Shown here in pieces: positions 1,835 to 23,724 of a stretch of 23,724 bases of DNA; within the stretch, counting starts at the first letter, position 1, and each line of letters starts with the position of its first letter. The notes below the pieces were generated by a model, which was not told the origin of the DNA, ran no database searches, and saw nothing but the letters and a program-made list of their open reading frames with translations. A program made the translations under genes and the position numbers. Origin of the DNA: Syntrophaceae bacterium UBA5619 (GTDB lineage Bacteria > Desulfobacterota > Syntrophia > Syntrophales > UBA5619); NCBI GenBank assembly GCA_002424545.1, contig DIKL01000086.1, positions 14,805 through 38,528 on the forward strand. The letters are read 5' to 3'.

Positions 1835-2224
1835 TCATCGGGTCGCCATCATCGGCGAAACCTTGCGAAGAGGCCCGGCGTGCAGCGGCGAGAGAATGAA
1901 ATCCTGCACGACATCGCGCTGAACGGGTCCCAGGGTTGCGAAATCCGGAAGGAAGTAATAGCCGCTCAGGGACGGCCTGACGATGCCTCTCCATCCGGAC
2001 CGGACCACAAGCGCATAATGCCCGCCGCCGGTTGTTTTCAGGGTTTGACTGTTCAACCCATCCGAAAAGGTGACGGTCACGCCGTCAATTCCCTCGGTCG
2101 TTCAGGAATCGGTGACTCTCCCGGAAATGGTGTGCGTCTGGGCGCCGACCGACTGAGACTGGACAAGGATCAAAAACAATGCCGGCAAGAACAGCAGCCA
2201 CATTGGCCTCTTGCACATTTTCAT
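1835..2224 (-). pseudogene. Small secreted Ig-like/carboxypeptidase-regulatory-like domain protein interrupted by in-frame TGA
   Basis: Reading from ATG 2224-2222, a clear signal peptide (MKMCKRPMWLLFLPALFLIL, then VQSQSVGAQ) leads into THTISGRVTDS and then meets TGA at 2104-2102. The same frame continues without a shift as TTEGIDGVTVTFSDG and GGGHYALVVRSGWRGIVRPS up to a stop at 1837-1835. That is one compact beta-sandwich repeat of the SGRV-DGVTVTFS-GYYF type common in secreted proteins. The two halves are therefore one 129-codon gene broken by a single nonsense codon, or a small domain left over from a larger surface protein. AGGGGGAG lies about 8 nt before the ATG, and a TTGATT-16-TATAAT promoter lies upstream. 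Selenocysteine read-through seems unlikely because this is not a redox domain and no family precedent is known to me. Confidence 0.6.
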
Positions 2225-5990: not shown

Positions 5991-7052
5991 TCAAGAACGA
6001 TTCCCGCCGTGATCGGCCGGGAAGGATTTCCGTGCTTCGGCCCGGCGGAGGGCCTCTGCGGCGAGCCCGTTCCGTCCGTCGGCGGCATAGGATTGCGCCA
6101 GGCGCAGCGCATGAAGAGGGTTGCCCGGTTCGGCGGCGACGGCCTTGATGAAGGCTTCCGCCGCGCGGGAATGAAATCCTTTCCGGGAGAGGCCGCGGCC
6201 CAGACGGTTCCAGAAGGCCGCCGCGGACACGGGCCGGAGTTCTGCGGCCCGGCCGTAAGCCTCCGCGGCCGCATCCGGTTTCCCCAGACAAAGCAGGCAA
6301 TCGCCGATCCCCGACCAGGCCAAAGGTTCGTCGGGACACGCCTTCAGAGATTTTTCCCATGCCTTCGCGGCCCATTCCGGGAATCCGGAACGCAGGAGAC
6401 CTTCCGCCAGGCGGTTCAGAAAAACGGCCGTCGCCGCGGGATCGATTTCCATGGCACGGTTGTACGCGGTCTCAGCCCGGCCGGGATCCCCTTCGGCAAG
6501 CCGGACATCGCCAAGCGAACACCAGTGTCCGGGTGCATCCGGTTCCCGTTCGGTCAGTTTCTCAAATACTCCCGAGGCCTCGGCGGCCATTCCCGTCGAG
6601 AGATAGGACTCTCCCAGGGTTTGAAGGATGCCGACATCCTCCGGTTGCGCAGCCGCGGCCCGCTCGCAGACCGAGATCAACGCCTTCCCGTTTTTCCTCT
6701 CCCGGTATATCCGGACGAGTTCATCGTAGGCAAAACCGGTGAAGAGTCCGCGCGCGAGCTCTTTCCGGAACAGTCGCTCAAAACAGGCAACGGCCTCGTC
6801 GCTTTCTCCGCTGTCGTGGAGCGCCCAGGCCAGCGCAAGGAGATGCGAATCCTCCTCCGGAGAGATTTGAACCAGCCTGCGATAGATGGGCACCGCCTCG
6901 GCGAAACGTCCCGCTTTCATCAGGTCGTCCGCGCGGTTTCGGTCGCGGGAAGAGGAATGAGCGGTGATTGTGGGATGCAAGGAAGGCACTTTTATGAAAC
7001 GGAACAGCCGTTGACTGAAAAGCCCCGGGAACGGTTCCGGTTCCCGGGGCAT
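5991..7052 (-). CDS. Tetratricopeptide-repeat protein
   Basis: 353 aa composed mostly of consecutive TPR units, recognisable by the repeated W/A-G-Y/F-A-P pattern, for example AGRFAEAVPIYRRLVQISPE, LGESYLSTGMAAEASGVFEK, LGDVRLAEGDPGRAETAYNR, and IGDCLLCLGKPDAAAEAYGR. No signal peptide or membrane segment is obvious, so it is probably a cytoplasmic scaffold. The first 44 residues look less like TPR. A start at ATG 6920 (MKAGRFAEAV) would remove them, but ATG 7052 has GGAGA just upstream and lies 10 bp from the end of the HesB-like gene, which suggests coupled translation. Its partner and task are unknown. The operon position behind an Fe-S-type selenoprotein gene may be only coincidental. Confidence 0.8.
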   Translation of the reverse strand: MPREPEPFPGLFSQRLFRFIKVPSLHPTITAHSSSRDRNRADDLMKAGRFAEAVPIYRRLVQISPEEDSHLLALAWALHDSGESDEAVACFERLFRKELARGLFTGFAYDELVRIYRERKNGKALISVCERAAAAQPEDVGILQTLGESYLSTGMAAEASGVFEKLTEREPDAPGHWCSLGDVRLAEGDPGRAETAYNRAMEIDPAATAVFLNRLAEGLLRSGFPEWAAKAWEKSLKACPDEPLAWSGIGDCLLCLGKPDAAAEAYGRAAELRPVSAAAFWNRLGRGLSRKGFHSRAAEAFIKAVAAEPGNPLHALRLAQSYAADGRNGLAAEALRRAEARKSFPADHGGNRS

Positions 7053-7062
7053 GATTCTCCGA

Positions 7063-7380
7063 TCAGCAACTCGTACAGGAACCGCAGGCGCTTTCCGCCG
7101 GTTTCAGGCTTGACGTCAGTTTGAATCCACCGCCGCGCGGCGTGGTGATGAATTCGACCGCGATCGGTTTAATCTTTTCAAACAGCTCCTTTTCGACCAG
7201 ATAGGTCACTCCCCGATCCTCGAACACCTCGTCGTTCTGTTTTGACTCATCCAGAGCCATGCCCAAAGAGGGCCCCGATCAGCCGCCCTCCTGCATCAGG
7301 ACTCGGATGGAAGCCGCCTCCGTGCGGTTTTTCAAGAATTCTTTGATCATCTCACTCGCTTTTTCAGATACGGAAAACAT
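7063..7380 (-). CDS. HesB/IscA-like selenoprotein with in-frame TGA (Sec34)
   Basis: Read from ATG 7380-7378 (AAAGGAGATAATC upstream), the product begins MFSVSEKASEMIKEFLKNR, runs to VLMQEGG, meets TGA at 7281-7279, and continues in the same frame with SGPSLGMALDESKQND to a stop at 7065-7063: 105 aa if the TGA is decoded. In A-type HesB/IscA relatives this position is the conserved Cys of the GGCSG motif. A HesB-related family with Sec at this Cys is known (TIGR01911, as I recall), mainly in Deltaproteobacteria. The half after the TGA is clearly conserved, with GVTYLVEKELFEKI, VEF and the C-terminal CGSCTSC (Cys99, 102, 105). The protein probably handles an Fe-S or thiol/selenol-linked metal centre in the cytoplasm. 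A pseudogene or a separate small ORF from codon 39 is the alternative. Confidence 0.87.
7251..7278 (-). promoter_or_regulatory. Candidate bacterial SECIS hairpin after the Sec TGA
   Basis: Starting one base after the TGA on the minus strand, UCGGGGCC (7278-7271) can pair with GGCUCUGG (7258-7251) in eight pairs including G-U, leaving a 12-nt loop that contains UUUGGG. A shorter alternative is GCCC-UCUUU-GGGC (7273-7261). Bacterial SECIS elements lie directly 3' of the UGA within the coding region and present G/U in the apical loop, so position and loop content fit. The fold was done by eye. Confidence 0.5.
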
Positions 7381-7428
7381 GATTATCTCCTTTTTTGGAC
7401 CCTCTCTCGGCCCGTCTGATTTTCGCTT

Positions 7429-7456
7429 AACCTAATGATTATTTTCTTTTTGTCAA
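7429..7456 (-). promoter_or_regulatory. Putative promoter for the HesB-like selenoprotein/TPR genes
   Basis: Minus-strand TTGACA (7456-7451), a 16-nt A/T-rich spacer, and TAGGTT (7434-7429) lie about 50 nt upstream of the ATG at 7380. The -35 is consensus and the -10 is weak. Confidence 0.5.
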
Positions 7457-13016: not shown

Positions 13017-14129
13017 TTAATAGATGAACAGATCTACCAGATAACCGGCTACAATGGCCACGAGGAAAACATTCAGGACGAAGGCGGCGATCAGCTTCTT
13101 TTTGAACATGGAGCCGAGGATGATGATCTCCGGGATGCTCGCCCCCGCCCCGCCGATGATGAGGGCCAGAACCGTCCCCAACCCCATCCCCTTTCCGACG
13201 AGGGCGGCGCTGATCGGGATGATGGTTTCCGACCGGATGTACATGGGCACCCCGATCAATGCCGCGATCGGAATGGACCAGGGGTTGCCCGGTCCCGCCA
13301 TTTTCACGACAAGGTCCTGCGGGAAAAATCCATAGATAAAGGCCCCGATGGCGGCGCCGAGGAGGAGATACCAGAAGACCCCCTTGAACGTCGCGACGGC
13401 GGACAGGGAGGCCCTTTTCATCTTTTCCTGAAAAGGAACCCGTACCGCGCCTTCGGCTCCGGTCGCGTCGAAGGCGGCGGCGCAACAGGACGACGGGGCC
13501 GTCGTCTTGGCACTCTTCCCTGCTTCCCCGGAACAGCATGCGCCGTCGGCCGGAAAAGACGGCAGCGTGATCATCGTCACGGGCGAAGCGTCGCCGGAAG
13601 GACAGCAGCCGGCCGCGGCGAGCGCTTTCGCGGGGCCCTGCTTCGGCTTGGCCTCCTGATCGCAGCAGGAGGCCTCCAGGCCGATCAGCGGCTTCACCTG
13701 GTCGACCATCCCCAGTCTCGACAGCAGGGCCGCCGTCACCATGGAGCCGAAGAAGGTGACGACCACATAGAAGACTGTTACCTTGACGCCGAAAAGCGAA
13801 AGCAGCAGCGCGATGATGACCGGGTTCAGGACCGGCGAGGAGAAGAGAAAGGCCATGACCGGACCAAAGGGGACGCCACCTTTGAGTAGGCCGGCCGTGA
13901 TCGGAACGGTGGAACAGGAGCAAAAAGGCGTAACGGCCCCCAGACCGGCGCCCAGGAGGTACTGCACCCAGGTCAGCTTGTCGGAGAGATAATCCCGGAT
14001 CCGGGACGGGGGGAGATATTCCGTCAAAAGCCCGATGAGAAAGGAGACGGCCACGAAAATCAGAATCAGCTCGCCGGCAATCACCAGGAAGAACCGGCCG
14101 GCGACGACAAAATTATTCAACTCGAACAT
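13017..14129 (-). CDS. ArsP/DUF318-type permease with Cys-rich cytoplasmic loop
   Basis: 370 aa, two bundles of about four membrane segments with duplicated permease motifs. The first bundle has GAVTPFCSCSTVPI (Cys70, Cys72) and FSSPVLNPVI; the second has MYIRSETIIPIS and GGAGASIPEI. This is the PF03773 permease family, whose members export organoarsenicals or thiophilic metals such as Cu/Zn. The loop between the halves (about 150-225) carries four separate CC pairs (155-156, 175-176, 198-199, 215-216), well suited to capture As, Sb, Se or soft metal ions. GAGGAGG lies 9 nt before the ATG. It follows the PadR gene by 36 bp in one operon. The true substrate is undetermined; arsM nearby favours an arsenic species. 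Confidence 0.88.
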   Translation of the reverse strand: MFELNNFVVAGRFFLVIAGELILIFVAVSFLIGLLTEYLPPSRIRDYLSDKLTWVQYLLGAGLGAVTPFCSCSTVPITAGLLKGGVPFGPVMAFLFSSPVLNPVIIALLLSLFGVKVTVFYVVVTFFGSMVTAALLSRLGMVDQVKPLIGLEASCCDQEAKPKQGPAKALAAAGCCPSGDASPVTMITLPSFPADGACCSGEAGKSAKTTAPSSCCAAAFDATGAEGAVRVPFQEKMKRASLSAVATFKGVFWYLLLGAAIGAFIYGFFPQDLVVKMAGPGNPWSIPIAALIGVPMYIRSETIIPISAALVGKGMGLGTVLALIIGGAGASIPEIIILGSMFKKKLIAAFVLNVFLVAIVAGYLVDLFIY

Positions 14130-14165
14130 GGATAATGCCTCCTCTAAATTGGAATGAATGAATGA

Positions 14166-14561
14166 CTATTTTCCGGCAAGACGCCGTTTCGCATCCTCTA
14201 TGGAAATGGCTTTCCCGCCTTCGATGGCCTTGTAAATGTAAGGGATCGAAGAGCGCCAGGCGTCGAGAGCCGCACGATAGGCCTTCACCCCCAGAGGGGT
14301 CAGGGCGTAGACCTGCCGCTTTTGAGCGCCCTTGAGTTGCGGCTCCTCGCCGACCTCTGCATAACCCTGTTTCGTCAACTCCTTGAGAATGGGATAGATG
14401 GTGCCCAGGGTGGGCGTGCAGCATCCGCTGGTTATGGATGCGAGTTCCTTGAGAATCCCATAGCCATGGTTGGGCTTCTTGGACAGGGTTTTCAAGACCA
14501 GAATCTTGGTAAACCCGATATTGATCAGCGATTTCCAGTAAGCGACTTCCGTGAGTTTCAT
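14166..14561 (-). CDS. PadR-family transcriptional regulator with vicinal cysteines
   Basis: 131 aa. The winged-helix PadR signature is LVLKTLSKKPNHGYGILKEL, followed by TPTLGTIYPILKELTKQGY and the wing RQVYALTPLGVKAY. Cys47-Cys48 (ITSGCCTPTLG) stand immediately before the recognition helix, a position where metalloid binding could alter DNA contact. The gene is divergent from arsM and upstream of the permease, so it probably controls both. It has a clear TTGACA-17-TATTTA promoter in the shared intergenic region, consistent with autoregulation. Ligand and sign of regulation are inference. Confidence 0.88.
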   Translation of the reverse strand: MKLTEVAYWKSLINIGFTKILVLKTLSKKPNHGYGILKELASITSGCCTPTLGTIYPILKELTKQGYAEVGEEPQLKGAQKRQVYALTPLGVKAYRAALDAWRSSIPYIYKAIEGGKAISIEDAKRRLAGK

Positions 14562-14613
14562 CAGGGACTCCCTTTATTGTTGGCTTTCTTTATATTGGAG
14601 AGCATTATAATGG

Positions 14614-14642
14614 TAAATACAGTAGCAGATTGCACCTGTCAA
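14614..14642 (-). promoter_or_regulatory. Putative padR-permease promoter in the divergent arsM region
   Basis: Minus-strand TTGACA (14642-14637), a 17-nt spacer and TATTTA (14619-14614). The quasi-palindrome CACCTGTCAAGTG (14633-14645) covers the -35, and TGTTCACATCAACA (14651-14664 region) is a second short inverted repeat nearer arsM; both are operator candidates. On the plus strand TATAAT (14606-14611) is a -10-like hexamer without a convincing -35. Confidence 0.55.
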
Positions 14643-14685
14643 GTGATATTGTTCACATCAACATTGCTCTGTAGGGGAGGTTCAA

Positions 14686-15492
14686 ATGAACAGGCAAAGA
14701 AATGACGAGATTCGCGGTGCGGTTCGAAAAAAGTACGGGAAGGTCGCCAAATCGGATCGGGCCGGTTGCGGCTGCTCGGCCCCATCGTGCTGCGGAACGC
14801 AGGATGCGTTCAATGCGGTCGATATCAGCCTTGCCTTGGGTTATTCCCGGGAGGAGGCGACGTCCGTCCCGGAAGGCGCGAACATGGGGCTCGGGTGCGG
14901 CAATCCGCAGGCCATCGCTTCCCTTCAAACCGGCGAGACCGTCCTCGATCTCGGCAGCGGCGGGGGATTCGACTGCTTTCTGGCGGGGAGGGCCGTGGGG
15001 GAAGAAGGACGGGTCATCGGTGTCGACATGACGCCGGAGATGATCACCAAATCCCGCCGGAACGCGGATCAGGCCGGTATCCGGAATGTCGATTTCCGGC
15101 TCGGCGAATTGGAGAATCTCCCGGTGGCCGACGGGATCGTTGATGTAATCATTTCAAATTGCGTGATCAACCTTTCCCCGGAGAAGGAGCGGGTGTTCGG
15201 CGAGGCGTTCCGTGTATTGAAACCGGGCGGACGCCTGGCGATTTCCGATGTGGTCACGACCGCCGAATTGCCCGCTGACATAAAAAATGACATGGCCTTT
15301 CACACCGGTTGCATAGCGGGAGCCTCCTCGATTGAGGAACTCGAATCGATGCTGGCGAGGACCGGCTTTAAGGACATTCAGATCAAGCCGAAGGCCGGAA
15401 GCAGGGAATTCATCCGCAACTGGATGCCGAACAGCAGGATCGAGGACTATGTGGTGTCGGCAACCATTATGGCCGTAAAACCACGGGCATGA
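14686..15492 (+). CDS. arsM: Arsenite S-adenosylmethionine methyltransferase
   Basis: 268 aa. ArsM methylates As(III) to mono-, di- and trimethyl species with SAM. The SAM-binding Rossmann core is VLDLGSGGGFDCFLAGR (87-103) with VIGVDMTPEMI (110-120). The three conserved arsenic-binding cysteines occur in their usual contexts: Cys71 in GLGCGNP, Cys159 in SNCVINLSPEK, and Cys209 in FHTGCIAGA. Extra N-terminal cysteines (GCGC, SCC at 28-36) are common in bacterial ArsM. GGGGAGG lies about 7 nt before the ATG. It is divergent from the padR-permease operon and is followed at once by a terminator, so it forms its own unit. Confidence 0.96.
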   Translation: MNRQRNDEIRGAVRKKYGKVAKSDRAGCGCSAPSCCGTQDAFNAVDISLALGYSREEATSVPEGANMGLGCGNPQAIASLQTGETVLDLGSGGGFDCFLAGRAVGEEGRVIGVDMTPEMITKSRRNADQAGIRNVDFRLGELENLPVADGIVDVIISNCVINLSPEKERVFGEAFRVLKPGGRLAISDVVTTAELPADIKNDMAFHTGCIAGASSIEELESMLARTGFKDIQIKPKAGSREFIRNWMPNSRIEDYVVSATIMAVKPRA

Positions 15493-15493
15493 C

Positions 15494-15516
15494 GGAGGTC
15501 TGGCCCTCCTTTTTTC
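15494..15516 (+). terminator. Rho-independent-type terminator of arsM
   Basis: GGAGG (15494-15498), a 6-nt loop, CCTCC (15505-15509) and a run of T (15510-15515) directly after the arsM stop. Confidence 0.65.
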
Positions 15517-15521
15517 CAAAG

Positions 15522-15677
15522 GGAGAGCCTAGCCGGGCCGTCGGCGAGGAGCCGCTCGCGCGGTCGCTCTTTGGCGGGCCAGCTCTTGATCGGCTCGGCA
15601 CAGAGGGTGCGTTTCGGCTCTTTCGTTGAAGCGGGCACTTTCATGAAGAGGCCCTTTTTGGGTGAGCGTGTTTTCAT
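15522..15677 (-). pseudogene. radC: Truncated radC (N-terminal fragment only)
   Basis: The first about 52 codons from ATG 15677 end in the sequence EPIKSWPAKERPRERLLADG followed by PARLS, which is the conserved N-terminal RadC motif (usually IKxWPxxERPREKLLxxG followed by ALSDAELLAI). Immediately after LS the homology stops and the frame runs into the reverse complement of the arsM terminator and 3' end. The helix-hairpin-helix remainder and the JAB/MPN metalloprotease domain are missing, so the gene cannot be functional. Its ATG overlaps the vapC stop in an ATGA, so it was the third gene of the vapBC transcript. The break at about 15521 is the edge of a rearrangement. Confidence 0.72.
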
Positions 15678-16096
15678 TTCGCCTTGTAGGGAAGCGCCTC
15701 CATGGTCAGGAGACCGGCGAGGGCGTCGAATTCCGGGTCCTTGTGGATCAGGACCGCGTTGTTCCGGATGGCAAAGGCGGCCACCACGGCATCGGCCAGC
15801 GAGACATGATGCTCCGCCTTCAGACGGGCCGCAGTCAGCAGGATCGGCTCGTCCATGGCCCAGAGGATCTCCGCCCGCAATTGACGGAGCAGGGCGTAGC
15901 GGCGGTCCGCTTCGGCGCGCCCCTTCTCCTGGAGGGTAATATAGTAGGTCTCCATGAGGACCGGCCAGGGCAGGAGAATGGAGGCGTCCTTCAGGACCTC
16001 CTCCACCCGGTCGCTGCCCGCTTCGTCCTCGATGAGGGTCAACAATGCCGAGGTGTCGAGGAGATAGGGGCCTCGGGGTGCGGTCGGCTTGGCCAT
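15674..16096 (-). CDS. vapC: PIN-domain ribonuclease toxin (VapC-like)
   Basis: 140 aa. The PIN acidic site is visible: Asp14 in LLDTSALL, Glu49 in PVLMETYY, Asp102 in SLADAVVAA, and Asp120 in IHKDPEFD. VapC toxins cleave RNA (often tRNA) with Mg2+ and are neutralised by the cognate antitoxin. It begins one base after the stop of the upstream AbrB-type gene, the standard antitoxin-toxin order. AAGGGG lies just upstream of the ATG, within the antitoxin 3' end. The stop overlaps the radC remnant start by ATGA. All catalytic residues are present, so the toxin could be active. Confidence 0.88.
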   Translation of the reverse strand: MAKPTAPRGPYLLDTSALLTLIEDEAGSDRVEEVLKDASILLPWPVLMETYYITLQEKGRAEADRRYALLRQLRAEILWAMDEPILLTAARLKAEHHVSLADAVVAAFAIRNNAVLIHKDPEFDALAGLLTMEALPYKAK

Positions 16097-16097
16097 C

Positions 16098-16334
16098 TTA
16101 GCCCCTTTCTTCGCGCTTGCTGTCCGCGCGACGCTCCTTCAACAGACGCGTGGTTAATCCTTCCCCCCGGCCCCGGCCCCGCAGCGAGGCGATCGGGTCC
16201 GCCGGCGTGGGAACGATGCGGATCGTTTCGCCGTCGTCGAGCCAGACCAGACGCGCCCCTCCGCCGATCTGATGGCGCTTCCGGATCGCCGCCGGGATGA
16301 CCGTCTGCCCCCGTTTCGTAACTGCCGTTTGCAT
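16098..16334 (-). CDS. vapB: AbrB/SpoVT-type antitoxin (VapB-like)
   Basis: 78 aa. The N-terminal swapped-hairpin DNA-binding domain is evident in VTKRGQTVIPAAIRKRHQIG and LVWLDDGETIRIVP. The C-terminal half (residues about 45-78) is Arg/Glu-rich and would be the toxin-binding tail. GGAGG lies 7 nt before the ATG, and a TTGCAT-17-TAAGAT promoter stands 20-48 nt upstream. As in other VapBC pairs, the antitoxin probably represses its own promoter. Confidence 0.87.
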   Translation of the reverse strand: MQTAVTKRGQTVIPAAIRKRHQIGGGARLVWLDDGETIRIVPTPADPIASLRGRGRGEGLTTRLLKERRADSKREERG

Positions 16335-16353
16335 AATTCACCTCCGATTGGAG

Positions 16354-16382
16354 ATCTTACAAGGCATTATCTGAAAATGCAA
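16354..16382 (-). promoter_or_regulatory. Putative vapBC promoter
   Basis: Minus-strand TTGCAT (16382-16377), a 17-nt spacer and TAAGAT (16359-16354), giving a leader of about 15 nt before the vapB ribosome site. Confidence 0.55.
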
Positions 16383-16638
16383 GCCGTAGATGTCTCCCTT
16401 GGCAGGCAGGGGTGGCGCACCAGCGTCCCCCGGATCTTCTCCTCTCGCATATCTTCCTGGACCAGGCGGGGGAGAGGCGACGCAGAACAGTGGGGTCCTC
16501 CCTTGGCGAGAAAGGCTGGCCACCTAACCAGGAAAATAGAGTCGGGGCTGCACGATGGGTCTCCCTAAATCACGGGGGATCCAGCCCTCGACCAGCTATC
16601 CGGCGCGGCATCCCTGCGGATGGCATGGGAATGTCGGA
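16383..16638. other. Gene-free spacer with a nested hairpin
   Basis: No convincing coding frame was found in 256 bp. CCTCTC (16441-16446) and GAGAGG (16472-16477) enclose a perfect CCTGG-A-CCAGG hairpin (16456-16466). CATCC-ctgc-GGATG near 16610 is another small hairpin close to the end of the beta-barrel gene and may aid termination of that operon. Confidence 0.4.
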
Positions 16639-18009
16639 TTAAAAATAGTACCCGACCTTGAGCTCCAGCTTGAAGTCATAGGGCTTCTCGCCGAATTCGC
16701 TGTTGGTCGGACCGTTGATGAAGCTCGCCTTGAGGCGCAAATCGAAGTTCGTGAAGCCCGTGTAGGCCGCCTCCGGAGAGATCTGGAAGCTCCGATCGTT
16801 CAGGTTCACGATCGTCGTGACTGCCGGCGTGAAATAGAGCAAATCGAAGGGCTCCTTCTGGGAGATCCGCAGATAGAGGTAATCCCGCATCGGATTTGCC
16901 CGGCCGAAGTTGCCCTCGGAGAGCTGCGCGGCCTTCGTCAGGGCGGCGTCACTGCCGGTGCTCCGGTAGGTCCGGTCGGCGTTGTTGACGAAGCCGAAGA
17001 AATCCGCCATCTCCTGCCCGGAAAACCCGGTCCCGTTCCGGTAGTACTCCAGGATCCAGGTCGTGTCCCGGGCCGTGAGGTAGCGTGTCCCCAAGAGATA
17101 ACTCGTGGCATCATATTCCACCGTCGAGACCTGGCCGGCCGGATCGGTCAGTTTCGCCTGGACGTCCTTGATATAGGCGATCTCGCCGTGAACCTCCCAG
17201 TTGGTTCCAATATTCCTTGAAAAGTCCGCCCCGTAGCGTGTCGTCCGGCTGCCGCCGGTGAAGACGATCAAGTCGATGTCGGTGTCGTAGAGGAGCAGGT
17301 AGAGCTTCCCGGCCAGGTTCAGGTAGTCCTTCTTGCCGAACTCGGCATTGATATGGTCGTAGACGGGCTGGACCACCGGCGTGAAGGAGAGGGTCTTGAG
17401 CGGACCGGCGAAGCTTTTTGTGTAATCGGCCGACAGGGCAAAGATCCCCTCCATGCCCACCTCGGGGTCGTCGGGGTCCTTGGCACGGTCGATGAACGCC
17501 ACGGGGTTCCAGGCGTACCCCTTCCCCCACTTGAAGGTCTTTTTCCCCGCATCGATCTTCCAGGAAGACGAGGGGTTCAGAGAAAGAAACCCCTCGTAGA
17601 GGTCGGTCTTCTCCTGATCCTCCAAACGGGAGATTTTGTAGTCCGTGTTGGTCTTGAAATAGAGGCGGCCGATACCCGCCTCCCAACTCCCCTCCAACTG
17701 GAGCTTGAGGTTCGCCTCCTCCAGCGACGATCCAATATCCCGGTTGTAATACTTCAGACGGTAGAGGGAAGAGTCCCGGCGGGTCCGGAAGAGGGTCGGC
17801 TTCATCTCCACGTACCCCCCGAAGTGGTAGGGTTTCTTCTCGATTTCGTTGAGATCGAAGGTATAGGTCTCCTCGGCGGGCAACGGGGCCGGCCAATGAA
17901 GAAGGAGAAACAAGGAGAAGAGGAGGAGGCCCATTCCCCCTCCGATGATCCTTCGGCGTCGGTAAGGGGGTTCCCCGTTTCGCCTGGTCGGCACGGCTGT
18001 CCCTTTCAT
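16639..18009 (-). CDS. Outer-membrane beta-barrel protein of an ABC/LolA-like export operon
   Basis: 456 aa. An Arg-rich N-terminus leads into a hydrophobic signal segment (MGLLLFSLFLLLHWPAPLPA, 26-45), after which the mature part contains alternating aromatic/polar beta strands (YHFGGYVEMKPTLF, LYFKTNTDYKI, TWILEYYRNG, YLYLRISQKEPF). The C-terminus LELKVGYYF ends in Phe, as BAM substrates do. This supports an outer-membrane barrel. The start overlaps the LolA-like gene stop in ATGA. ATG at codon 26 is an alternative start that would remove the basic leader. Being last in an operon with an ABC transporter and a LolA-like carrier, it may be the outer-membrane end of that system. I do not assign a family name. 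Confidence 0.8.
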   Translation of the reverse strand: MKGTAVPTRRNGEPPYRRRRIIGGGMGLLLFSLFLLLHWPAPLPAEETYTFDLNEIEKKPYHFGGYVEMKPTLFRTRRDSSLYRLKYYNRDIGSSLEEANLKLQLEGSWEAGIGRLYFKTNTDYKISRLEDQEKTDLYEGFLSLNPSSSWKIDAGKKTFKWGKGYAWNPVAFIDRAKDPDDPEVGMEGIFALSADYTKSFAGPLKTLSFTPVVQPVYDHINAEFGKKDYLNLAGKLYLLLYDTDIDLIVFTGGSRTTRYGADFSRNIGTNWEVHGEIAYIKDVQAKLTDPAGQVSTVEYDATSYLLGTRYLTARDTTWILEYYRNGTGFSGQEMADFFGFVNNADRTYRSTGSDAALTKAAQLSEGNFGRANPMRDYLYLRISQKEPFDLLYFTPAVTTIVNLNDRSFQISPEAAYTGFTNFDLRLKASFINGPTNSEFGEKPYDFKLELKVGYYF

Positions 18010-18743
18010 TTCCGCAATGATTCGATGTTGGGCATGAAGGTCAGGGTGAAGATCTCATCCTTGAAATCCCGCTTTTTGAGTCCGGCGAAGATCATCACCG
18101 ACTTGTATCCCTTGAAGAGGGGGCTGTCCGTCTCGATCACCGCCGGTCGCTTGATCCCGCCGCCGAAGTCCTTGACGTCCTTGAAATAGAGGGTCTTGAT
18201 CAGCATGTTCGCCTCGGTGAGGCACTCGATCTTCGTGGGCAGGACGCTCTTTTTATCCGCCCAGATCTTCAGCCGGTCGTAGGCCACGGTCTTGGTCTTG
18301 GCCTTCAGGAAGAGGAGGTATTCACCGCCCGTCTCCTCCACCTTTTCCACGTCGTATTCCGCCGCGTAGTCGAGCTGGAGGATGTCGGCGTTGTTGAAGA
18401 CGCCGCCCACGACGGACTGGAGGCTCGTGATCCGGATCGGTTTGCCGACATTGGGGATGTACAGCCACATGTTCTCCCCGAGCCTGAGGGTGCTCCGCCC
18501 CTTTTCGCTGGCCGGGGCGATGAAGAGGGAGGCCACCTTGTCGAGCCCCTTCTTCACCGTGAAGAGGGTGAACTCCTTCTTTTTGCCGTCGGGCTCGACG
18601 TTGATGAGCTTCCGGTAGGACTCGTAAGAGTCGGGGCTGAGGTTCCGGTCCACCTGCTTCAGGAGAGCCGCGCCGTCAACGGCATAAACCGGCAGGGCGA
18701 TGCAGAGTGACAGTAACACGATGATCGTTTTGATGATTCGCAT
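18006..18743 (-). CDS. LolA-like periplasmic outer-membrane lipoprotein-sorting family protein
   Basis: 245 aa with a standard Sec signal peptide (MRIIKTIIVLLSLCIALPVYA, cleavage after Ala21 likely). The mature part resembles the LolA/outer-membrane-lipoprotein-sorting fold: LLKQVDRNLSPDSYESYRK, LRLGENMWLYIPNVGKPIRI, FNNADILQLDYAAEYDVE, and DRLKIWADKKSVLPTKIE. These are half-barrels that carry a lipid or acylated cargo through the periplasm. No lipobox is seen, so it is probably soluble. AAGGAG lies 6-7 nt before the ATG. It sits 12 bp after the ABC permease and overlaps the barrel gene by 4 bp. Cargo is unknown. Confidence 0.87.
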   Translation of the reverse strand: MRIIKTIIVLLSLCIALPVYAVDGAALLKQVDRNLSPDSYESYRKLINVEPDGKKKEFTLFTVKKGLDKVASLFIAPASEKGRSTLRLGENMWLYIPNVGKPIRITSLQSVVGGVFNNADILQLDYAAEYDVEKVEETGGEYLLFLKAKTKTVAYDRLKIWADKKSVLPTKIECLTEANMLIKTLYFKDVKDFGGGIKRPAVIETDSPLFKGYKSVMIFAGLKKRDFKDEIFTLTFMPNIESLRK

Positions 18744-18755
18744 GACAGTCTCCTT

Positions 18756-19994
18756 TTACGTGTGCCTGAGCGCCTGGATCGGCTCCATCCGCGACGCCTT
18801 GAAGGCGGGCTGGAGGCTGGCGATGACCGAGACGACAATGACCGTGGCCGAGATCATGAGGACGTCGGCCGGGGAAACGCCGACCTGGAGGATGAGCCCC
18901 TGCTGCTGGCCGAAGTTGTAAGTGAGTTCGAGGGCATTGAGGATGTAGACCAGGCCAATCCCGACGAGATCGCCGATCAAGGCGCCGACCACCCCCATAC
19001 AGAATCCTTCGATCACAAACATGTTCAGGATCTTTCCGGGGAGCGTGCCGATCGCCGCGATCGTGCCGATCTCCCGGATCCGTTCGTAGACCGCCATGAT
19101 CATGACGTTCATGATGCTGATCAGGACGATGGCGATGAGCATGAGCTTGATGAAAAAGGTCATCACGTCGATCATCCGGGCAATGTTGAAGAAGGGCGAG
19201 AGCTTCTCCCAGATGTGGAGCTCGAAAATCGGCTTCCCCTGCTGATTGGATTCCCGGGCCAGAAGGCCGTCCAGTTTTTCGCCGAAGGCGGCAAGCTTTC
19301 CGAAGTCCTTGAGGCGGACGGCATATTCGCTCACCTGCCGGCCCTCCATCCGCAGGAGTTCCCGGGCGTCGTCCATGTGGACATAGCCGTCCCGGCCGCC
19401 GGGTCCGGTGGCGCTCTCCATCACGCCCGTCACAATGAACTGCTTGCCGTTTACGGAGCCGTCGGCGTTCGTGGCCACGATGACCGCCGCGTCGCCGGGT
19501 TTGACCTTCATCCCCCGGGCCAGAAGCTCGGGAATCAGGATCCCGCCCGGCTTCAGATCCTTGCTTCCTTCGGTGACCCGGCCGGGGAGAAGCGGAACGG
19601 TCTTGAACTCCCGTTCCGGCACGATGGCAGTGAGTCGGATACTCGAGGTCTCGGTAAAGTTGCTGAACATACCGCCGAACTTCACCCGCGGCGAGTAGGC
19701 CTCGATCTCGGGTTGGGCGTCGAGGATCTTCTCCAGCCGGCCGATGGCGCCGTCCTTCAGATTGAGGTTCAAAGGGAGCGTCTCGATGGAGGCAACGAAT
19801 CCTTTGCGGTGCACCTGGAGGTGGCCCAGCATCGAGTCGGTGATCTGGCCGATCATCATGTTCTTGAAGGAGCCGGAAATGGAGACAAAGGCCAGGACGA
19901 AGACCACGCCCACGGTGATCAGCGAGGCGGTCAGAAGCGTCCGCCTTTTATAGCGGAGCAGATTCCGGATTGCGATTTTAAAGAGATTTCCCAT
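18756..19994 (-). CDS. ABC transporter permease (MacB/LolC-E/FtsX type)
   Basis: 412 aa with the type-VII ABC layout: one N-terminal membrane helix (about 20-40, after IAIRNLLRYKRRTLL), a large periplasmic MacB-PCD-like domain (about 45-280), and three C-terminal helices (about 285-400) ending in LQPAFKASRMEPIQALRHT, a very typical FtsX/MacB ending. AAAGGAGG stands 8 nt before ATG 19994; the longer upstream frame lies within the ATPase gene. It overlaps the ATPase gene by 17 bp. These transporters usually extrude lipoproteins, lipids or peptides from the periplasmic leaflet by mechanotransmission. The single permease would act as a homodimer, unlike LolCE. Confidence 0.92.
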   Translation of the reverse strand: MGNLFKIAIRNLLRYKRRTLLTASLITVGVVFVLAFVSISGSFKNMMIGQITDSMLGHLQVHRKGFVASIETLPLNLNLKDGAIGRLEKILDAQPEIEAYSPRVKFGGMFSNFTETSSIRLTAIVPEREFKTVPLLPGRVTEGSKDLKPGGILIPELLARGMKVKPGDAAVIVATNADGSVNGKQFIVTGVMESATGPGGRDGYVHMDDARELLRMEGRQVSEYAVRLKDFGKLAAFGEKLDGLLARESNQQGKPIFELHIWEKLSPFFNIARMIDVMTFFIKLMLIAIVLISIMNVMIMAVYERIREIGTIAAIGTLPGKILNMFVIEGFCMGVVGALIGDLVGIGLVYILNALELTYNFGQQQGLILQVGVSPADVLMISATVIVVSVIASLQPAFKASRMEPIQALRHT

Positions 19995-20691
19995 GGCCGT
20001 TTCCTCCTTTGCCTTTAGCCCCGTTGAGTTTTCCGTCTTCGAGGGTGAAGATCGTTTCCGCCTCTCCGACGATCTTCGGGTCATGGGTCGAGAAGATGAA
20101 CGTGGTATTGAATTCATCCCGCATCTTTTTCATCAGATTGAGAACCATGTAAGCCGTATCGTGGTCCAGATTGGCGGTGGGTTCATCCGCGAGGACCAGT
20201 TTTGGGTTCGTCACCAGCGCGCGGGCGACGGCCACCCGCTGTTTCTGTCCTCCCGAGATCTGGTCGGGCTTTTTATCCCGCTGGTCCGCCATCCCCACGG
20301 CGGCCAGCAGAGCGATCACCCGCTTTTTCCGCTCCCCGGGCTCAACCCTCTGGACCATGATAAGGGGATATTCAATGTTCTCATAGACCGTTAAGACCGG
20401 CAAGAGGTTGAAGTCCTGAAAGATGAAGCCGATGTTCTTGCCCCGGAACTCGGCGCTCGCCCTGCGGTCCAAGGCGGCTACCTCCGTATCGGCGACGGTT
20501 AGAACACCCTCGGTTGGCTTGTCCAGGCAGCCGATCAGGTTCAAAAGCGTTGTTTTGCCGCTCCCGGACGGCCCAATGAATGAGACAAACGAGGCGGGTT
20601 CGATCTCGAAACTGACGTCCCGAAGGGCCTGAACCGCCACCTCCCCCACATGGTACGTCTTGCTGATTTGGTTTGCTGAAATCAGTGCCAC
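19978..20691 (-). CDS. ABC transporter ATPase (MacB/LolD type)
   Basis: 237 aa starting from GTG 20691, which has AAGGAGGG 9 nt upstream; the longer frame to 20808 adds residues without homology. Motifs: Walker [10 protein letters not shown] (40-48), Q-loop Gln92 in [10 protein letters not shown], signature SGGQKQR (146-152), Walker B LVLADE (165-170), and H-loop His203 in STHDP. The [12 protein letters not shown] sequence after the Q-loop is typical of the LolD/MacB/FtsE subgroup. It energises the permease encoded next. It is the first gene of the four-gene minus-strand operon. Confidence 0.95.
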
Positions 20692-20959
20692 TGTCCACGC
20701 CCTCCTTCTATTATGATTCGTACGAACCCTTCCATCATCAGCCGCTTCCCCTTTCCCCGCCTTTGAAACCGAAGGAAAGACCGCAACAGCGGAAGATGTC
20801 TCGATCAAGTCTTATTCTATCACAAAACAGCGGAAAGGTCGAAGCATCAGCGCGTCGCGCTTTTCCCGTCTTCCGTGGGCAACCCCGCCGGTCCGTCCCG
20901 GCAAAAGGACCGTGCGCCAGAGCCGTTCATTTTCGGTACCGGTTTTTTCAGGAACGGCC
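20692..20959. other. Divergent intergenic region upstream of the ABC operon
   Basis: No gene was seen. On the minus strand TAGAAT (20819-20814) is a plausible -10, with only a weak TTCGAC 18 nt upstream; it would give a leader of about 115 nt for the ABC operon. The plus-strand half belongs to the arsR control region. Confidence 0.35.
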
Positions 20960-20987
20960 TTGACAGGGGACAGGGCATTATTATATT
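20960..20987 (+). promoter_or_regulatory. arsR promoter
   Basis: TTGACA (20960-20965), a 16-nt spacer and TATATT (20982-20987), with the start expected near 20994, inside the operator palindrome. Confidence 0.7.
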
Positions 20988-21004
20988 TGCACGTAAACGC
21001 AAAT
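20985..21004. promoter_or_regulatory. ArsR/SmtB-type operator palindrome
   Basis: ATTTGC (20985-20990), 8 bp, GCAAAT (20999-21004): perfect 6-bp arms, extended by one further A-T match outside a mismatch. It overlaps the -10 and the predicted start, ideal for repression by the ArsR-type protein encoded 19 bp downstream. Confidence 0.68.
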
Positions 21005-21022
21005 GTACAAGAAAGGGAATTC

Positions 21023-21424
21023 ATGAACGCAGAGCCGAAACACGCCAGGAAGGAGGATCTCGATCGCCTGCTCTCCCCGCAACTCTTCAAGGCCATCGGC
21101 GATCCAAACCGGATCGCCATCCTGCGCGACCTCAGCAAGAGGTGCGCCCCCCTGACCGTCGGCCAGATCGCCGAGGGTTTGCCGGTGGACGTCTCGGTGG
21201 TTTCGCGGCACCTGGCGCTTCTCCGCGACGCCGAAATCCTGATCGCGCGCAAGGAGGGCAAGGAGGTCCGCTACTCCCTCAATTCGCGAAACCTGATCGG
21301 GACCCTAAGGGCCATTGCCGACGCCTTCGAGGCCTGCTGTCCCGAGGAGTGCGTCATGGGCGATGAGACGAATGCCCAGCCGAAGGGGTCCCGGATTCGG
21401 AAAAGCAAGGGCAGTTCACGGTAA
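21023..21424 (+). CDS. arsR: ArsR/SmtB-family metal(loid)-responsive repressor
   Basis: 133 aa from ATG 21023 (GAAAGGGAATTC upstream). Upstream in-frame starts lie within the promoter and operator. The ArsR winged helix is clear: LFKAIGDPNRIAILRDL, LTVGQIAEGLPVDVSVVSRH, LALLRDAEILIARKEGKEVRY. Cys41 lies before the recognition helix. A C-terminal cluster Cys105-Cys106-x3-Cys110 (EACCPEEC) is a likely thiolate sensor site, so the inducer could be As(III), Sb(III), or a soft divalent metal. The Lys/Arg/Ser-rich tail is not conserved. It is followed by the DUF2703 gene after 96 bp on the same strand. Confidence 0.93.
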   Translation: MNAEPKHARKEDLDRLLSPQLFKAIGDPNRIAILRDLSKRCAPLTVGQIAEGLPVDVSVVSRHLALLRDAEILIARKEGKEVRYSLNSRNLIGTLRAIADAFEACCPEECVMGDETNAQPKGSRIRKSKGSSR

Positions 21425-21520
21425 CAGCGGGACCGGCATTGGACCAATCGAGCCCGAGCTGCCCGGGTCTCAGGTTCATCAAGCGGACGTCCCCGATTCG
21501 ATAAGAAAGGAAGCCTATCC

Positions 21521-22114
21521 ATGGAAAACGAGAAGAATAAGGAACTGTTCACGATGGCACCGGAGGACGGCTGCGGATGCGGAGGCAACACCACCGACGC
21601 AACGGAAGGAGACACCGCCGCCGAGCCGGCAGCGAAAAAGGTGTTGGCGGTCGAACTGCTCGTGATCGACCTGACCACCTGCAAGCGCTGCGTCCCCACG
21701 GGAGACCAGTTGCAGCAGGCCGTCCGCCTGCTTGAACCGGTGGCCGAGTCACTGGGAATCGAATTGAGACATCGCCAGATCGTCGTCCAGACGCCGCAGG
21801 AGGCCAAGGACCACGCCCTGTTGAGTTCACCGACGATCAGGCTCAACGGTCGGGACATCGAACAGGACATCCGCGAATCCCTCTGCGAATCCTGCGGGGA
21901 TCTGACCGAGAACAACACCCTGGTGGACTGCCGCGAGTGGCACTACCGCGGCAAGGTATACCCCGCGGCGCCGCTGCCCCTGCTGGTTGAGGCGATCATG
22001 GCCGCCATGCTGACGATCGACGAACCACCGGTCATCCCCCAACCCCTTGACGCTTTGCCGGAGAACCTTGAACGGTACTTCGCCAACAAGAAGCTCCCGA
22101 TGAGCTGCTGCTGA
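21521..22114 (+). CDS. DUF2703 thioredoxin-fold-like Cys-rich protein
   Basis: 197 aa. LLVIDLTTCKRCVPTG with Cys54-x2-Cys57 followed by LLSSPTIRLNGRDIE is the DUF2703 core, which looks like a thioredoxin-fold domain with a CxxC in the active-site place and the usual cis-Pro (SPT). A second pair LCESCGD (Cys122, Cys125), an N-terminal GCGCGG (18-22) and a C-terminal MSCC raise the number of thiols unusually. DUF2703 genes commonly accompany arsR and metal-resistance genes. It may bind or reduce a thiophilic metal(loid); the function is not established. AAAGGAAG lies about 8 nt before the ATG. No signal peptide, so it is cytoplasmic. Confidence 0.85.
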   Translation: MENEKNKELFTMAPEDGCGCGGNTTDATEGDTAAEPAAKKVLAVELLVIDLTTCKRCVPTGDQLQQAVRLLEPVAESLGIELRHRQIVVQTPQEAKDHALLSSPTIRLNGRDIEQDIRESLCESCGDLTENNTLVDCREWHYRGKVYPAAPLPLLVEAIMAAMLTIDEPPVIPQPLDALPENLERYFANKKLPMSCC

Positions 22115-22162
22115 ACAGCGGGATCCGTTGATCGCCCAGGGTCTCTTGCGCCGGTGATTTTT

Positions 22163-23098
22163 TCAATTGCAGTGGCTGCAATGCTCCATCTCCCCGGCCG
22201 ACGCCGGCAGGATCTGGAGTGTCGTATGGTTGATTCGATACTTGTGGAGCAGCATCTCCTGAACGGCACGGATGATGGCTTCGTGGTCTGGGTTATCCTC
22301 TCCGGAGACCAGATGGGCGGAGAGCAGCTTCTGTTCGGAACCGGTCTCCCAGATGTGGAGATCGTTCACCTCCGACACGGCGGGGATCGTCAGCAGGTCA
22401 TTCTTGACCTGAAGGAAATCGATACCGGGGGGTACGGCGTCCAGGAGTGAATTGACCGCCTGCCGGACAATCTTGTAGATTTCGCGGGCGATGACCAGAC
22501 AGATCAACAGGGAGAGGATCGGATCGACGAAACGCCAGCCGAAAAACAGGATCAGCAGGGCGCCGACGATCACCGCGAGGGAGAACAAGGAATCCTGGAG
22601 CGAATGGAGCCAGGCGCTCTTCATGTTGATGTTCCGTGCCGCGACCTTCCGCAGCAGGAGCGTGGCCGCCCCGTTCCCGACGAGGGCCACGACGGCGACC
22701 CACAGCATCGTCTGGCCGGGGACCGCCGCCGGCGCCGTGAATCGCTTGACGGTCTCCCAAAAGACGAAGGCGATCACGACGGACAGACCGATGCTGTTGA
22801 CAAAGGCGGCGATGAACTCGATCTTCCGATAGCCGTAGGTCTTCCGCTCGTTGGCGGGACGGCGGGCAACCTTCTCCGCCCAGTAGCTGAAGAGCATGTG
22901 GGCGATGTCGCTCAGGTTGTGGACGGCGTCCGAGATCAGCGCCATGCTCTGGATCAGCAGACCGAACACCAGTTCGAAGGCCACGATCCCGCCGTTGATC
23001 ACGATGGCCAGGATCAGGTTCTTCAGCGAAGCCGGCGGTTCATGACGATGGCTGTGACCGGGGCTGTGGTCTTGGTCGTGGCTGTGTTCCATGTTCAT
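22163..23098 (-). CDS. Cation diffusion facilitator (Zn/Cd/Co exporter, CzcD/ZitB-like)
   Basis: 311 aa. A His-rich N-terminus (HSHDQDHSPGHSHRHE, 5-20) is followed by six membrane segments and a cytoplasmic ferredoxin-like domain. The metal site of CDF exporters is seen as DAVHNLSD in TM2 (His60, Asp64) and HSLQD in TM5 (His165, Asp169), the HD-HD pattern typical of Zn2+/Cd2+ transporters. ASAGEMEHCSHCN at the C-terminus adds a Cys/His cluster. It exchanges metal for H+ across the inner membrane. It is downstream of the 4Fe-4S gene by 36 bp and convergent with the DUF2703 gene. Confidence 0.94.
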   Translation of the reverse strand: MNMEHSHDQDHSPGHSHRHEPPASLKNLILAIVINGGIVAFELVFGLLIQSMALISDAVHNLSDIAHMLFSYWAEKVARRPANERKTYGYRKIEFIAAFVNSIGLSVVIAFVFWETVKRFTAPAAVPGQTMLWVAVVALVGNGAATLLLRKVAARNINMKSAWLHSLQDSLFSLAVIVGALLILFFGWRFVDPILSLLICLVIAREIYKIVRQAVNSLLDAVPPGIDFLQVKNDLLTIPAVSEVNDLHIWETGSEQKLLSAHLVSGEDNPDHEAIIRAVQEMLLHKYRINHTTLQILPASAGEMEHCSHCN

Positions 23099-23134
23099 TT
23101 GTCTTTTGCTTTCTCAGACCCGCAAGAACGGAAA

Positions 23135-23338
23135 TCAGCGCATTTCGACGGCATTACCGCAGCATGCCGTTGAGCAGAGGCCGCACCCATCGCACTTTTC
23201 ATGGTCGAAAGCGATCCTGCCGCCGAGCGGTTCCGCGTCATCTTCGATATAGGCAACCGCTCCGCGCGAACAGGCCTCGACGGCTTTGCACAGCGCCTTG
23301 ACTGCCGGACATTTCCTCTTGTCAAGATGGGGTCTCAT
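23135..23338 (-). CDS. Small 4Fe-4S ferredoxin-like protein
   Basis: 67 aa. The C-terminal CDGCGLCSTACC gives the ferredoxin pattern Cys49-x2-Cys52-x2-Cys55-x3-Cys59, enough for one 4Fe-4S cluster. The N-terminal half has Cys10, Cys17 and Cys23 with irregular spacing (KCPAVKALCKAVEAC) and so may not be a second complete cluster. The gene starts 3 bp after the stop of the CcdA-like gene, so the pair is coupled. It may pass electrons to or from the membrane thiol-redox protein. Confidence 0.85.
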   Translation of the reverse strand: MRPHLDKRKCPAVKALCKAVEACSRGAVAYIEDDAEPLGGRIAFDHEKCDGCGLCSTACCGNAVEMR

Positions 23339-23341
23339 GGT

Positions 23342-23724
23342 TCACCCGATCAAAAATGGACTGCCGATGAAATAGATCCCCAGAAGACCGATCACCACTC
23401 CGGCGCTCTTCTTGAACCAACCCCCGGAAGCGATCCAGGCATCGCTCTCGGTCAGCCGCCGGACAGCCGCCGTGGAGCTGCCGGCGATCATGATGGGAAG
23501 GCAGTGACCCAGAGCGAACAGCAGGCTCAGCAGAACCCCGGTCATAACCTTCTGCTGAACCGTGATGATCGCCAGGATCGGGGCGATGAAGCCGAAGGTG
23601 CAGGAACCGGACAGAACCCCGTAGGCCAGCCCCAGAAATAAAGCGCCGCGGAGGCCCCTTACGTTCAGCTTTTGCAGTCGGCCGCCGGAAAGATTGCATT
23701 TCTCCACCCCCAGCATCCCCAGGG
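23342..23724 (-). CDS. CcdA/DsbD-type membrane thiol-redox protein, C-terminal part (5' end outside window)
   Basis: The frame is open to the right edge; about 127 codons are visible. GALFLGLAYGVLSGSCTFGF and LLFALGHCLPIMIAG are the second-half membrane motifs of CcdA with their conserved Cys; further helices follow at VMTGVLLSLLFAL and AGVVIGLLGIYFIG. CcdA proteins carry reducing equivalents from cytoplasmic thioredoxin to periplasmic thiol partners. The stop is 3 bp before the 4Fe-4S gene ATG. Co-occurrence with a metal exporter and, convergently, ArsR/DUF2703 resembles arsenic or metal clusters in anaerobes where CcdA-like genes sit beside thiol carriers. Confidence 0.85.
   Translation of the reverse strand, partial: LGMLGVEKCNLSGGRLQKLNVRGLRGALFLGLAYGVLSGSCTFGFIAPILAIITVQQKVMTGVLLSLLFALGHCLPIMIAGSSTAAVRRLTESDAWIASGGWFKKSAGVVIGLLGIYFIGSPFLIG

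What the first reader, a model, noticed from the sequence alone, without database searches (positions are those of the whole stretch)
7063..7380. HesB-like selenoprotein hidden by an in-frame TGA
The frame before and after TGA 7281-7279 is one continuous HesB/IscA-like protein, and the TGA falls exactly at the conserved Cys of the GGCSG motif. Related selenoproteins are known in this family, so the genome is predicted to have Sec machinery (SelA, SelB, SelD, SelC tRNA). Standard annotation would give a 33-residue stub or start at codon 39.
Basis: partly seen in the sequence, partly recalled or inferred. Interest (0 to 1): 0.75.

Follow-up and report, generated by a model that had tools for sequence, protein, structure and literature searches.

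The report
HesB-like selenoprotein, plus second candidate
The stop codon inside this small gene is almost certainly read as the rare amino acid selenocysteine, giving an iron-sulphur-carrier-like protein of a known selenium-containing kind; a second gene in the same window shows signs of the same trick and has no counterpart in the published inventory that was checked.

Summary
Confirmed. Minus-strand frame 7380-7063 is one 105-codon IscA/HesB-like protein with TGA (7281-7279) at the conserved Cys of GG[C/U]SGP. Its genome, a MAG whose nearest named relatives are Syntrophales, has tRNA-Sec, SelA, SelB and SelD. A hairpin 23-37 nt behind the UGA (GGCUC-UGGAU-GAGUC) forms fully in 71 of 72 distinct UGA-bearing relatives but 2 of 11 Cys relatives, with compensatory changes: the SECIS. 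Of 135 over-cut-off matches in 149 genomes of the order, 122 carry one TGA (my count). The protein belongs to NCBIfam NF038090 (IscA_HesB_Se), not TIGR01911, whose cut-off it misses. HesB-like selenoproteins are known (PMC1794560, PMC13188914): a new member of a known kind. Two points go further. Those 149 genomes show no ordinary IscA/SufA/ErpA over the TIGR00049 cut-off, so this protein may be the order's A-type carrier. And a second in-frame TGA (2104-2102) lies in a secreted beta-sandwich protein; the same codon is TGA in another family's genome at 51% identity: a candidate selenoprotein without counterpart in the inventory read.

The parts
7063..7380 (-). HesB/IscA-like selenoprotein gene, 105 codons plus stop, Sec at codon 34
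7279..7281 (-). in-frame UGA read as Sec
   Evidence: TGA in 23 of 24 relatives fetched from named genomes; tRNA-Sec, SelA, SelB, SelD in the genome
7244..7258 (-). SECIS hairpin GGCUC-UGGAU-GAGUC, 23-37 nt behind the U of UGA
   Evidence: all 5 pairs in 71 of 72 Sec sequences, 2 of 11 Cys sequences; compensatory changes
7385..7390 (-). GGAGAT, ribosome-binding-site-like
   Evidence: sequence; similar purine-rich stretches in the relatives
7022..7050 (-). terminator-like hairpin (11 pairs, then TTTT) just behind the gene
   Evidence: consensus scan only, 3 sites found in the region against 1.2 in shuffles
5991..7052 (-). TPR-repeat gene downstream; true start uncertain, because the longest frame begins before the terminator-like hairpin
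   Evidence: Pfam TPR families; a similar frame downstream in 30 of 50 other loci
1835..2224 (-). separate, second candidate selenoprotein gene: signal peptide plus CarboxypepD_reg-like beta-sandwich
2102..2104 (-). in-frame TGA of the second candidate (codon 41)
   Evidence: same codon is TGA in G116 (L016/L110) and G093 (L111)
2071..2087 (-). candidate SECIS-like hairpin UGACGG-CGUGA-CCGUCA of the second candidate; weak
   Evidence: 15 of 15 core nt identical in L111, but the best fold of L111 is in another register and synonymous recoding gives the 6-pair stem in 5% (window) and 20% (L111)

Best explanation
The gene encodes a selenoprotein of the IscA/HesB fold. At UGA codon 34 the ribosome does not stop: SelB with Sec-tRNA-Sec, bound to the hairpin GGCUC-UGGAU-GAGUC just behind the codon, inserts selenocysteine, and translation runs on through a Cys-rich tail. 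Sec insertion rests on comparative genomics, not on experiment. Inferred function: Sec34 with tail cysteines (C99, C102, C105) takes the place of the Cys ligands of IscA, so that the protein binds and hands on an Fe-S cluster, iron or a sulphur/selenium species; it may be the A-type carrier of these bacteria. Confidence in Sec insertion about 0.97 (the figure given here); in the Fe-S carrier role about 0.5.
For: Frame, family and conserved position; tRNA-Sec 79.2 bits with anticodon tca, SelA 613.8, SelB 372.6, SelD 375.9 bits, each over its curated cut-off; TGA in 122 of 135 over-cut-off matches of the order (my count); hairpin in 71 of 72 Sec against 2 of 11 Cys sequences, and absent from 7 of 7 Cys copies that lie beside a Sec copy; synonymous recoding gives the hairpin in only 2-3%. 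IscA-like fold. For the carrier role: no TIGR00049 match over cut-off in 149 genomes other than six that are NF038090 proteins themselves, while IscU/NifU occurs in 133 of 149.
Against: No protein or selenium data. The cut-off for tRNA-Sec was also passed by 5 of 14 control genomes, so that model alone is not proof, and the MAG is 7.6% contaminated. Relaxing the hairpin to 4 pairs and UGGA, 5 of 11 Cys sequences also have it. For the carrier role: 28 of 149 genomes have no match; 6 of 14 control genomes also lack an A-type carrier over cut-off, and these carriers are reported absent from many anaerobes (PMC2682760, passages); the tail is not resolved in the model; no cluster binding was tested.
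Confidence: 0.97

Rival explanations
1. The TGA is a nonsense mutation or sequencing error in a Cys gene.
For: Cys forms exist (L026, L043, L044, L049).
Against: The TGA recurs in the great majority of relatives across the order and phylum; the SECIS is conserved with it.
Confidence: 0.01
2. UGA is read as Trp (another genetic code) or by unspecific readthrough.
For: Of 121 protein records held (one is the query itself), 41 matched my motif: 24 show W at this site and 17 C; W is what code-4 gene calls would give.
Against: TGA ends many genes of this window; Sec machinery is present; the site is TGC or TGT in the Cys relatives and in none of the loci read TGG; the hairpin goes with UGA.
Confidence: 0.01
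3. Function rival: the selenoprotein is not an Fe-S carrier but a redox or metal-handling protein on the IscA fold (thiol/selenol chemistry of Sec34 with the CxxCxxC tail).
For: PF01521 is not reached (21.6 of 26.3 bits) and TIGR00049 just missed (56.8 of 58.8); some genomes keep Sec and Cys copies side by side, suggesting specialised roles; not every genome has it.
Against: Fold and position of the first ligand as in IscA, invariant C102 and near-invariant C99 and C105; no other A-type carrier over cut-off found.
Confidence: 0.45

Closest known systems
NCBIfam NF038090, IscA_HesB_Se (IscA/HesB family protein)
   Same: 115.3 bits over the full model, cut-off 85; most members of the order also carry a TGA
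   Different: nothing tested sets it apart; it is an ordinary member
HesB-like selenoprotein, TIGR01911 (HesB_rel_seleno), motif UxGP in the review PMC13188914
   Same: motif U-S-G-P, Sec at the same Cys
   Different: 43.7 bits against the cut-off of 66.35; 0 of 149 genomes of the order over it
IscA / SufA A-type carriers (E. coli IscA 1r94, 1s98; 2Fe-2S IscA 1x0g; SufA 2d2a)
   Same: fold (Foldseek E 1.2e-6, TM 0.75 to 1r94) and position of the first Cys ligand
   Different: Sec for the first Cys; tail CGSCTSC instead of CGCG (IscA ligands and tail recalled)

Membership tests
NF038090 IscA_HesB_Se | score over the curated cut-off (85 bits) | tested here: met
   115.3 bits, residues 1-101 of model 1-101
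TIGR01911 HesB_rel_seleno | score over the curated cut-off (66.35 bits) | tested here: not met
   43.7 bits; 0 of 149 genomes of the order
Bacterial selenoprotein gene | in-frame UGA at a conserved Cys, kept in relatives | tested here: met
Bacterial selenoprotein gene | SECIS hairpin close behind the UGA with G early in a small apical loop (loop rule partly recalled; [quoted passage not shown]
   GGCUC-UGGAU-GAGUC, 71 of 72 Sec sequences
Bacterial selenoprotein gene | tRNA-Sec, SelA, SelB, SelD in the genome | tested here: met
Bacterial selenoprotein gene | selenium in the protein | not testable with these tools
   needs 75Se labelling or mass spectrometry
A-type Fe-S carrier (PF01521 / TIGR00049) | score over the curated cut-offs | tested here: not met
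   PF01521 21.6 of 26.3 bits; TIGR00049 56.8 of 58.8 bits
A-type Fe-S carrier (PF01521 / TIGR00049) | IscA fold | tested here: met
A-type Fe-S carrier (PF01521 / TIGR00049) | three Cys ligands (first Cys plus two of the tail; recalled) | tested here: inconclusive
   first is Sec; tail Cys 99, 102, 105 conserved but not resolved in the model
Second candidate (2224-1835) as selenoprotein | in-frame TGA conserved at one codon between distant relatives, frame kept on both sides | tested here: met
   G000, G116 and G093, 51% identity between window and G093; only three genomes
Second candidate (2224-1835) as selenoprotein | SECIS under selection | tested here: inconclusive
   core 15 of 15 nt identical, but L111 folds best in another register and the stem is not rare by recoding
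Second candidate (2224-1835) as selenoprotein | Cys homologue at the Sec site | tested here: not met
   none among the aligned distant domain relatives; nine database homologues lack the upstream part and could not be judged

The most novel reading that the evidence does not exclude
The window encodes two selenoproteins. Besides HesB-Se, gene 2224-1835 is a selenoprotein family not in the inventory read: an exported single-domain transthyretin/CarboxypepD_reg-like beta-sandwich with Sec at residue 41 and, in the window's version, no cysteine in the mature part, so that Sec would act alone outside the cytoplasm. (A further bold reading, not needed for this one: HesB-Se is the order's only A-type Fe-S carrier, which would tie Fe-S delivery to selenium.)
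Probability: 0.65. Interest if true: 0.62.

Novelty: new member of a known kind. Interest (0 to 1): 0.42.

Why it matters
HesB-Se is mostly a clean confirmation, but it yields a SECIS consensus for NF038090 with a natural control (Sec and Cys copies side by side, full hairpin only in the Sec copy) for a gene that gene callers truncate. If the Sec form is the order's A-type carrier, the reported absence of such carriers from many Delta-proteobacteria (PMC2682760, passages) may be partly an annotation effect, and iron-sulphur maturation would depend on selenium supply, which can be tested. If the second gene is real, it adds an exported selenoprotein on a fold not in the inventory read and with no Cys homologue seen, a class that searches based on Cys/TGA pairs would miss.

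Tried and rejected
Rfam scan of 7000-7450: three sub-threshold hits, taken as chance. TIGR01911 membership: rejected. Terminal TGA as a second Sec: rejected, since the last codon is TGA in 31, TAA in 15 and TAG in 5 of 51 loci. RNAalifold also proposed a stem upstream of the SECIS; not pursued. Second NF038090 copy in G000 (contig C8): 98.5% identical over 2333 nt to a genome of another family (G007), so probably contamination of the MAG, not counted as a paralogue. Viral contigs (one scan) and plasmids (one search) for relatives of the second candidate: none. One search listed 127 frames with an internal TGA and printed those overlapping my rough gene mask by less than 60%; besides 2104, one precedes a MazE-like antitoxin start (TGA 16340) and the rest I judged by eye as non-coding. 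A ferredoxin-like frame follows the stop of the DsbD-like gene; it has its own ATG.

Rows dropped: L040 from all SECIS counts; 5 duplicate loci; 7 duplicate sequences. My first motif search missed 12 loci, added by coordinates. L095, L101 and L103 were not picked up by the motif search and are not among the 83. Genome searches gave at most 30 loci each as DNA, so the SECIS count covers part of the genomes with matches. The shuffles do not correct for relatedness. Alignment A1 (32 rows) was my choice from the 120 proteins listed: full-length rows with C at the site; rows with W and truncated rows were left out.

Mended on checking: the conserved-hairpin argument for the second gene is weaker than I first wrote (L111's best fold is in another register, and another 15-nt stretch of the gene reaches 14 of 15), L111 has a Cys in its longer tail, and 5 of 14 control genomes pass the tRNA-Sec cut-off. 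The novel case is now the second gene alone, at 0.65; Sec there is put at 0.65 instead of 0.7.

Full report
WHAT IS THERE. On the minus strand GGAGAT (7390-7385) precedes ATG 7380; the frame runs 105 codons to TGA 7065-7063 and holds TGA 7281-7279 at codon 34. It matches NF038090 (IscA_HesB_Se) with 115.3 bits over the full model (cut-off 85); TIGR00049 (56.8 of 58.8), TIGR01911 (43.7 of 66.35) and PF01521 (21.6 of 26.3) fall short. Neither half alone hits Pfam.

SEC MACHINERY. The own genome (2.6 Mb, 135 contigs, 88.5% complete, 7.6% contaminated) has tRNA-Sec (79.2 bits; ARAGORN anticodon tca), SelA (613.8), SelB (372.6) and SelD (375.9 bits), each over its cut-off; SelD holds a TGA itself, at GAG-U-ACK. 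Among 14 control genomes the cut-offs were passed by 5 (tRNA-Sec), 1 (SelA), 2 (SelB) and 2 (SelD). Nearest named relatives are MAGs labelled Syntrophales, Syntrophaceae or Deltaproteobacteria; L016 is 97% identical.

CONSERVATION OF THE TGA. Of 25 loci from named genomes 23 have TGA at this codon, L026 has TGC and L040 is an ordinary HesB-type protein. In 149 genomes of the order 121 match NF038090, 116 over the cut-off; of the 135 over-cut-off rows listed, 122 hold one TGA and 13 none (my count). In 297 genomes of the phylum 165 match, 125 over cut-off. tRNA-Sec is over its cut-off in 131 of the 149.

SECIS. In 47 distinct Sec genes the codons +8 to +11 behind UGA are nearly fixed at synonymous sites (GCT 42 of 42 Ala, CTG 47 of 47, GAT 43 of 47, GAG 45 of 47), while Leu at +32 uses six codons. 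They form a hairpin, GGCUC-UGGAU-GAGUC in the window, 23-37 nt behind the U of UGA. With loci from the phylum 83 distinct sequences were compared: all 5 pairs and a UGG loop in 71 of 72 Sec and 2 of 11 Cys sequences; with 4 pairs and UGGA allowed, 72 of 72 and 5 of 11. Pair 25/35 turns from C-G to U-A in 4 sequences, pair 24/36 from G-C to U-G in 3 and to G-U in 23; 359 of 360 cells pair against a shuffle mean of 349.4 (sd 0.8; 0 of 2000 reach it). Synonymous recoding with the window's codon usage gives the hairpin in 2-3%. Seven loci of the phylum (L078, L079, L080, L086, L093, L096, L099) hold a Sec and a Cys copy close together on one strand: the full hairpin is present in 7 of 7 Sec copies and 0 of 7 Cys copies.

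THE PROTEIN. AlphaFold2 on 32 chosen rows gives pLDDT 84 with an unresolved tail (96-105); best PDB matches are E. coli IscA, 2Fe-2S IscA and SufA (by sequence). Sec34 lies where IscA has its first Cys ligand (ligands recalled); C102 is invariant and C99 and C105 nearly so in those rows.

CONTEXT. A TPR gene follows downstream in 30 of 50 other loci (E 1e-8; 49 of the 50 have at least 1000 nt from the gene's start; the 25 hits displayed run in the same direction). In the window a terminator-like hairpin separates the two, so a shared transcript is unproven. The PK_C-domain gene upstream is shared by 12 loci, PilT by 14.

FUNCTION. 6 of 149 genomes have a TIGR00049 match over cut-off, and all six places are NF038090 matches; 8 of 14 controls are over cut-off. 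IscU/NifU occurs in 133 of 149. So, within the reach of these models and of incomplete genomes, the order has scaffold proteins and no ordinary A-type carrier, and HesB-Se is the only candidate seen. Against: 28 of 149 genomes have no match to it; 6 of 14 controls have no carrier over cut-off; and such carriers are reported absent from many Delta-proteobacteria, Firmicutes and others (PMC2682760, passages). I put the carrier role at one in two.

COMPARISON WITH PRINT. HesB-like selenoproteins were listed in 2006 for Syntrophus aciditrophicus, Syntrophobacter fumaroxidans, Geobacter sulfurreducens and others, with a SECIS remnant in a Cys form of Desulfitobacterium hafniense (PMC1794560, passages and tables). 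A 2026 review lists 'HesB-like protein', TIGR01911, UxGP, under 'experimentally verified' (PMC13188914, section 7 parts 1 and 2 read). No held paper contains 'NF038090'. I did not see the 2006 sequences, so which subfamily they belong to is open.

A SECOND IN-FRAME TGA. A script showed TGA 2104-2102 in a frame from ATG 2224 (GGGGGAG upstream) to TGA 1837-1835: signal-peptide-like start, then ISGRVTDS-U-TTEGIDGVTVTF. Read through, residues 32-76 match CarboxypepD_reg weakly (24.3 bits, cut-off 32.3). The AlphaFold2 model (9 rows, of which 3 span the start) has strand 30-39, before the TGA, within a confident beta-sandwich (block pLDDT 92-96), like the transthyretin-like domain of carboxypeptidase D. 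In 149 genomes 18 have some match; three carry the TGA: G000, G116 (L016/L110, 90% identity) and, at the same codon, G093 of another family (L111, 51% over 110 residues); the other 15 are distant domain relatives without stops, none with Cys at the site where aligned. The 15-nt core of a hairpin 18-32 nt behind the TGA is identical in window and L111 (5 of 5 codons, against 21 of 40 at other shared residues), but another 15-nt stretch reaches 14 of 15, and L111's best fold there is in another register. All 11 database homologues found start at the same Val eight codons behind the TGA (a GTG in the DNA read), as expected if the frame upstream is closed; P0122 is the window's own and P0132 is L111's. 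For the other nine no DNA was available. Further weak points: recoding gives the stem in 5-20%; before the TGA the two close relatives differ by 3 synonymous and 9 non-synonymous codons, after it by 2 and 1; L111 has a Cys in its longer tail. Starting at the GTG would lose the signal peptide and the first strand, so reading through is the better explanation. No row of the review's table shows this domain, its text has neither 'carboxypeptidase' nor 'PF13620', and 'carboxypeptidase regulatory-like' with 'selenoprotein' finds 0 held papers. I put Sec here at 0.65.

VERDICT. Observation confirmed; interpretation supported with the family corrected; a new member of a known kind. What is added: the SECIS with its paired control, the apparent lack of ordinary A-type carriers in the order, and the second candidate.

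Noticed in passing
window 1835-2224 (-), TGA 2104-2102: Second conserved in-frame TGA, in a secreted CarboxypepD_reg-like protein; the same codon is TGA in two further genomes, one of another family. Candidate selenoprotein family without counterpart in the inventory read.
   Followed up: partly
L078, L079, L080, L086, L093, L096, L099: Sec and Cys copies of the HesB-like gene close together on one strand; only the Sec copy keeps the full SECIS hairpin.
   Followed up: partly
G000 contig C8 (L041/L046): Second TGA-bearing NF038090 gene in the MAG, 98.5% identical over 2333 nt to a genome of another family (G007): probable contamination.
   Followed up: partly
window 5991-7052 (-): TPR-repeat gene conserved downstream of HesB-Se in 30 of 50 other loci; a possible functional partner.
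   Followed up: partly
window 13017-23722: Arsenic-type neighbourhood: ArsP_1 permease, a methyltransferase that looks like ArsM, a small regulator that looks like ArsR, DUF2703 protein, DsbD-like frame (Pfam; ArsM and ArsR names recalled).
   Followed up: no
L014 (G000:C16): SelD of this genome carries an in-frame TGA itself, at GAG-U-ACK.
   Followed up: no
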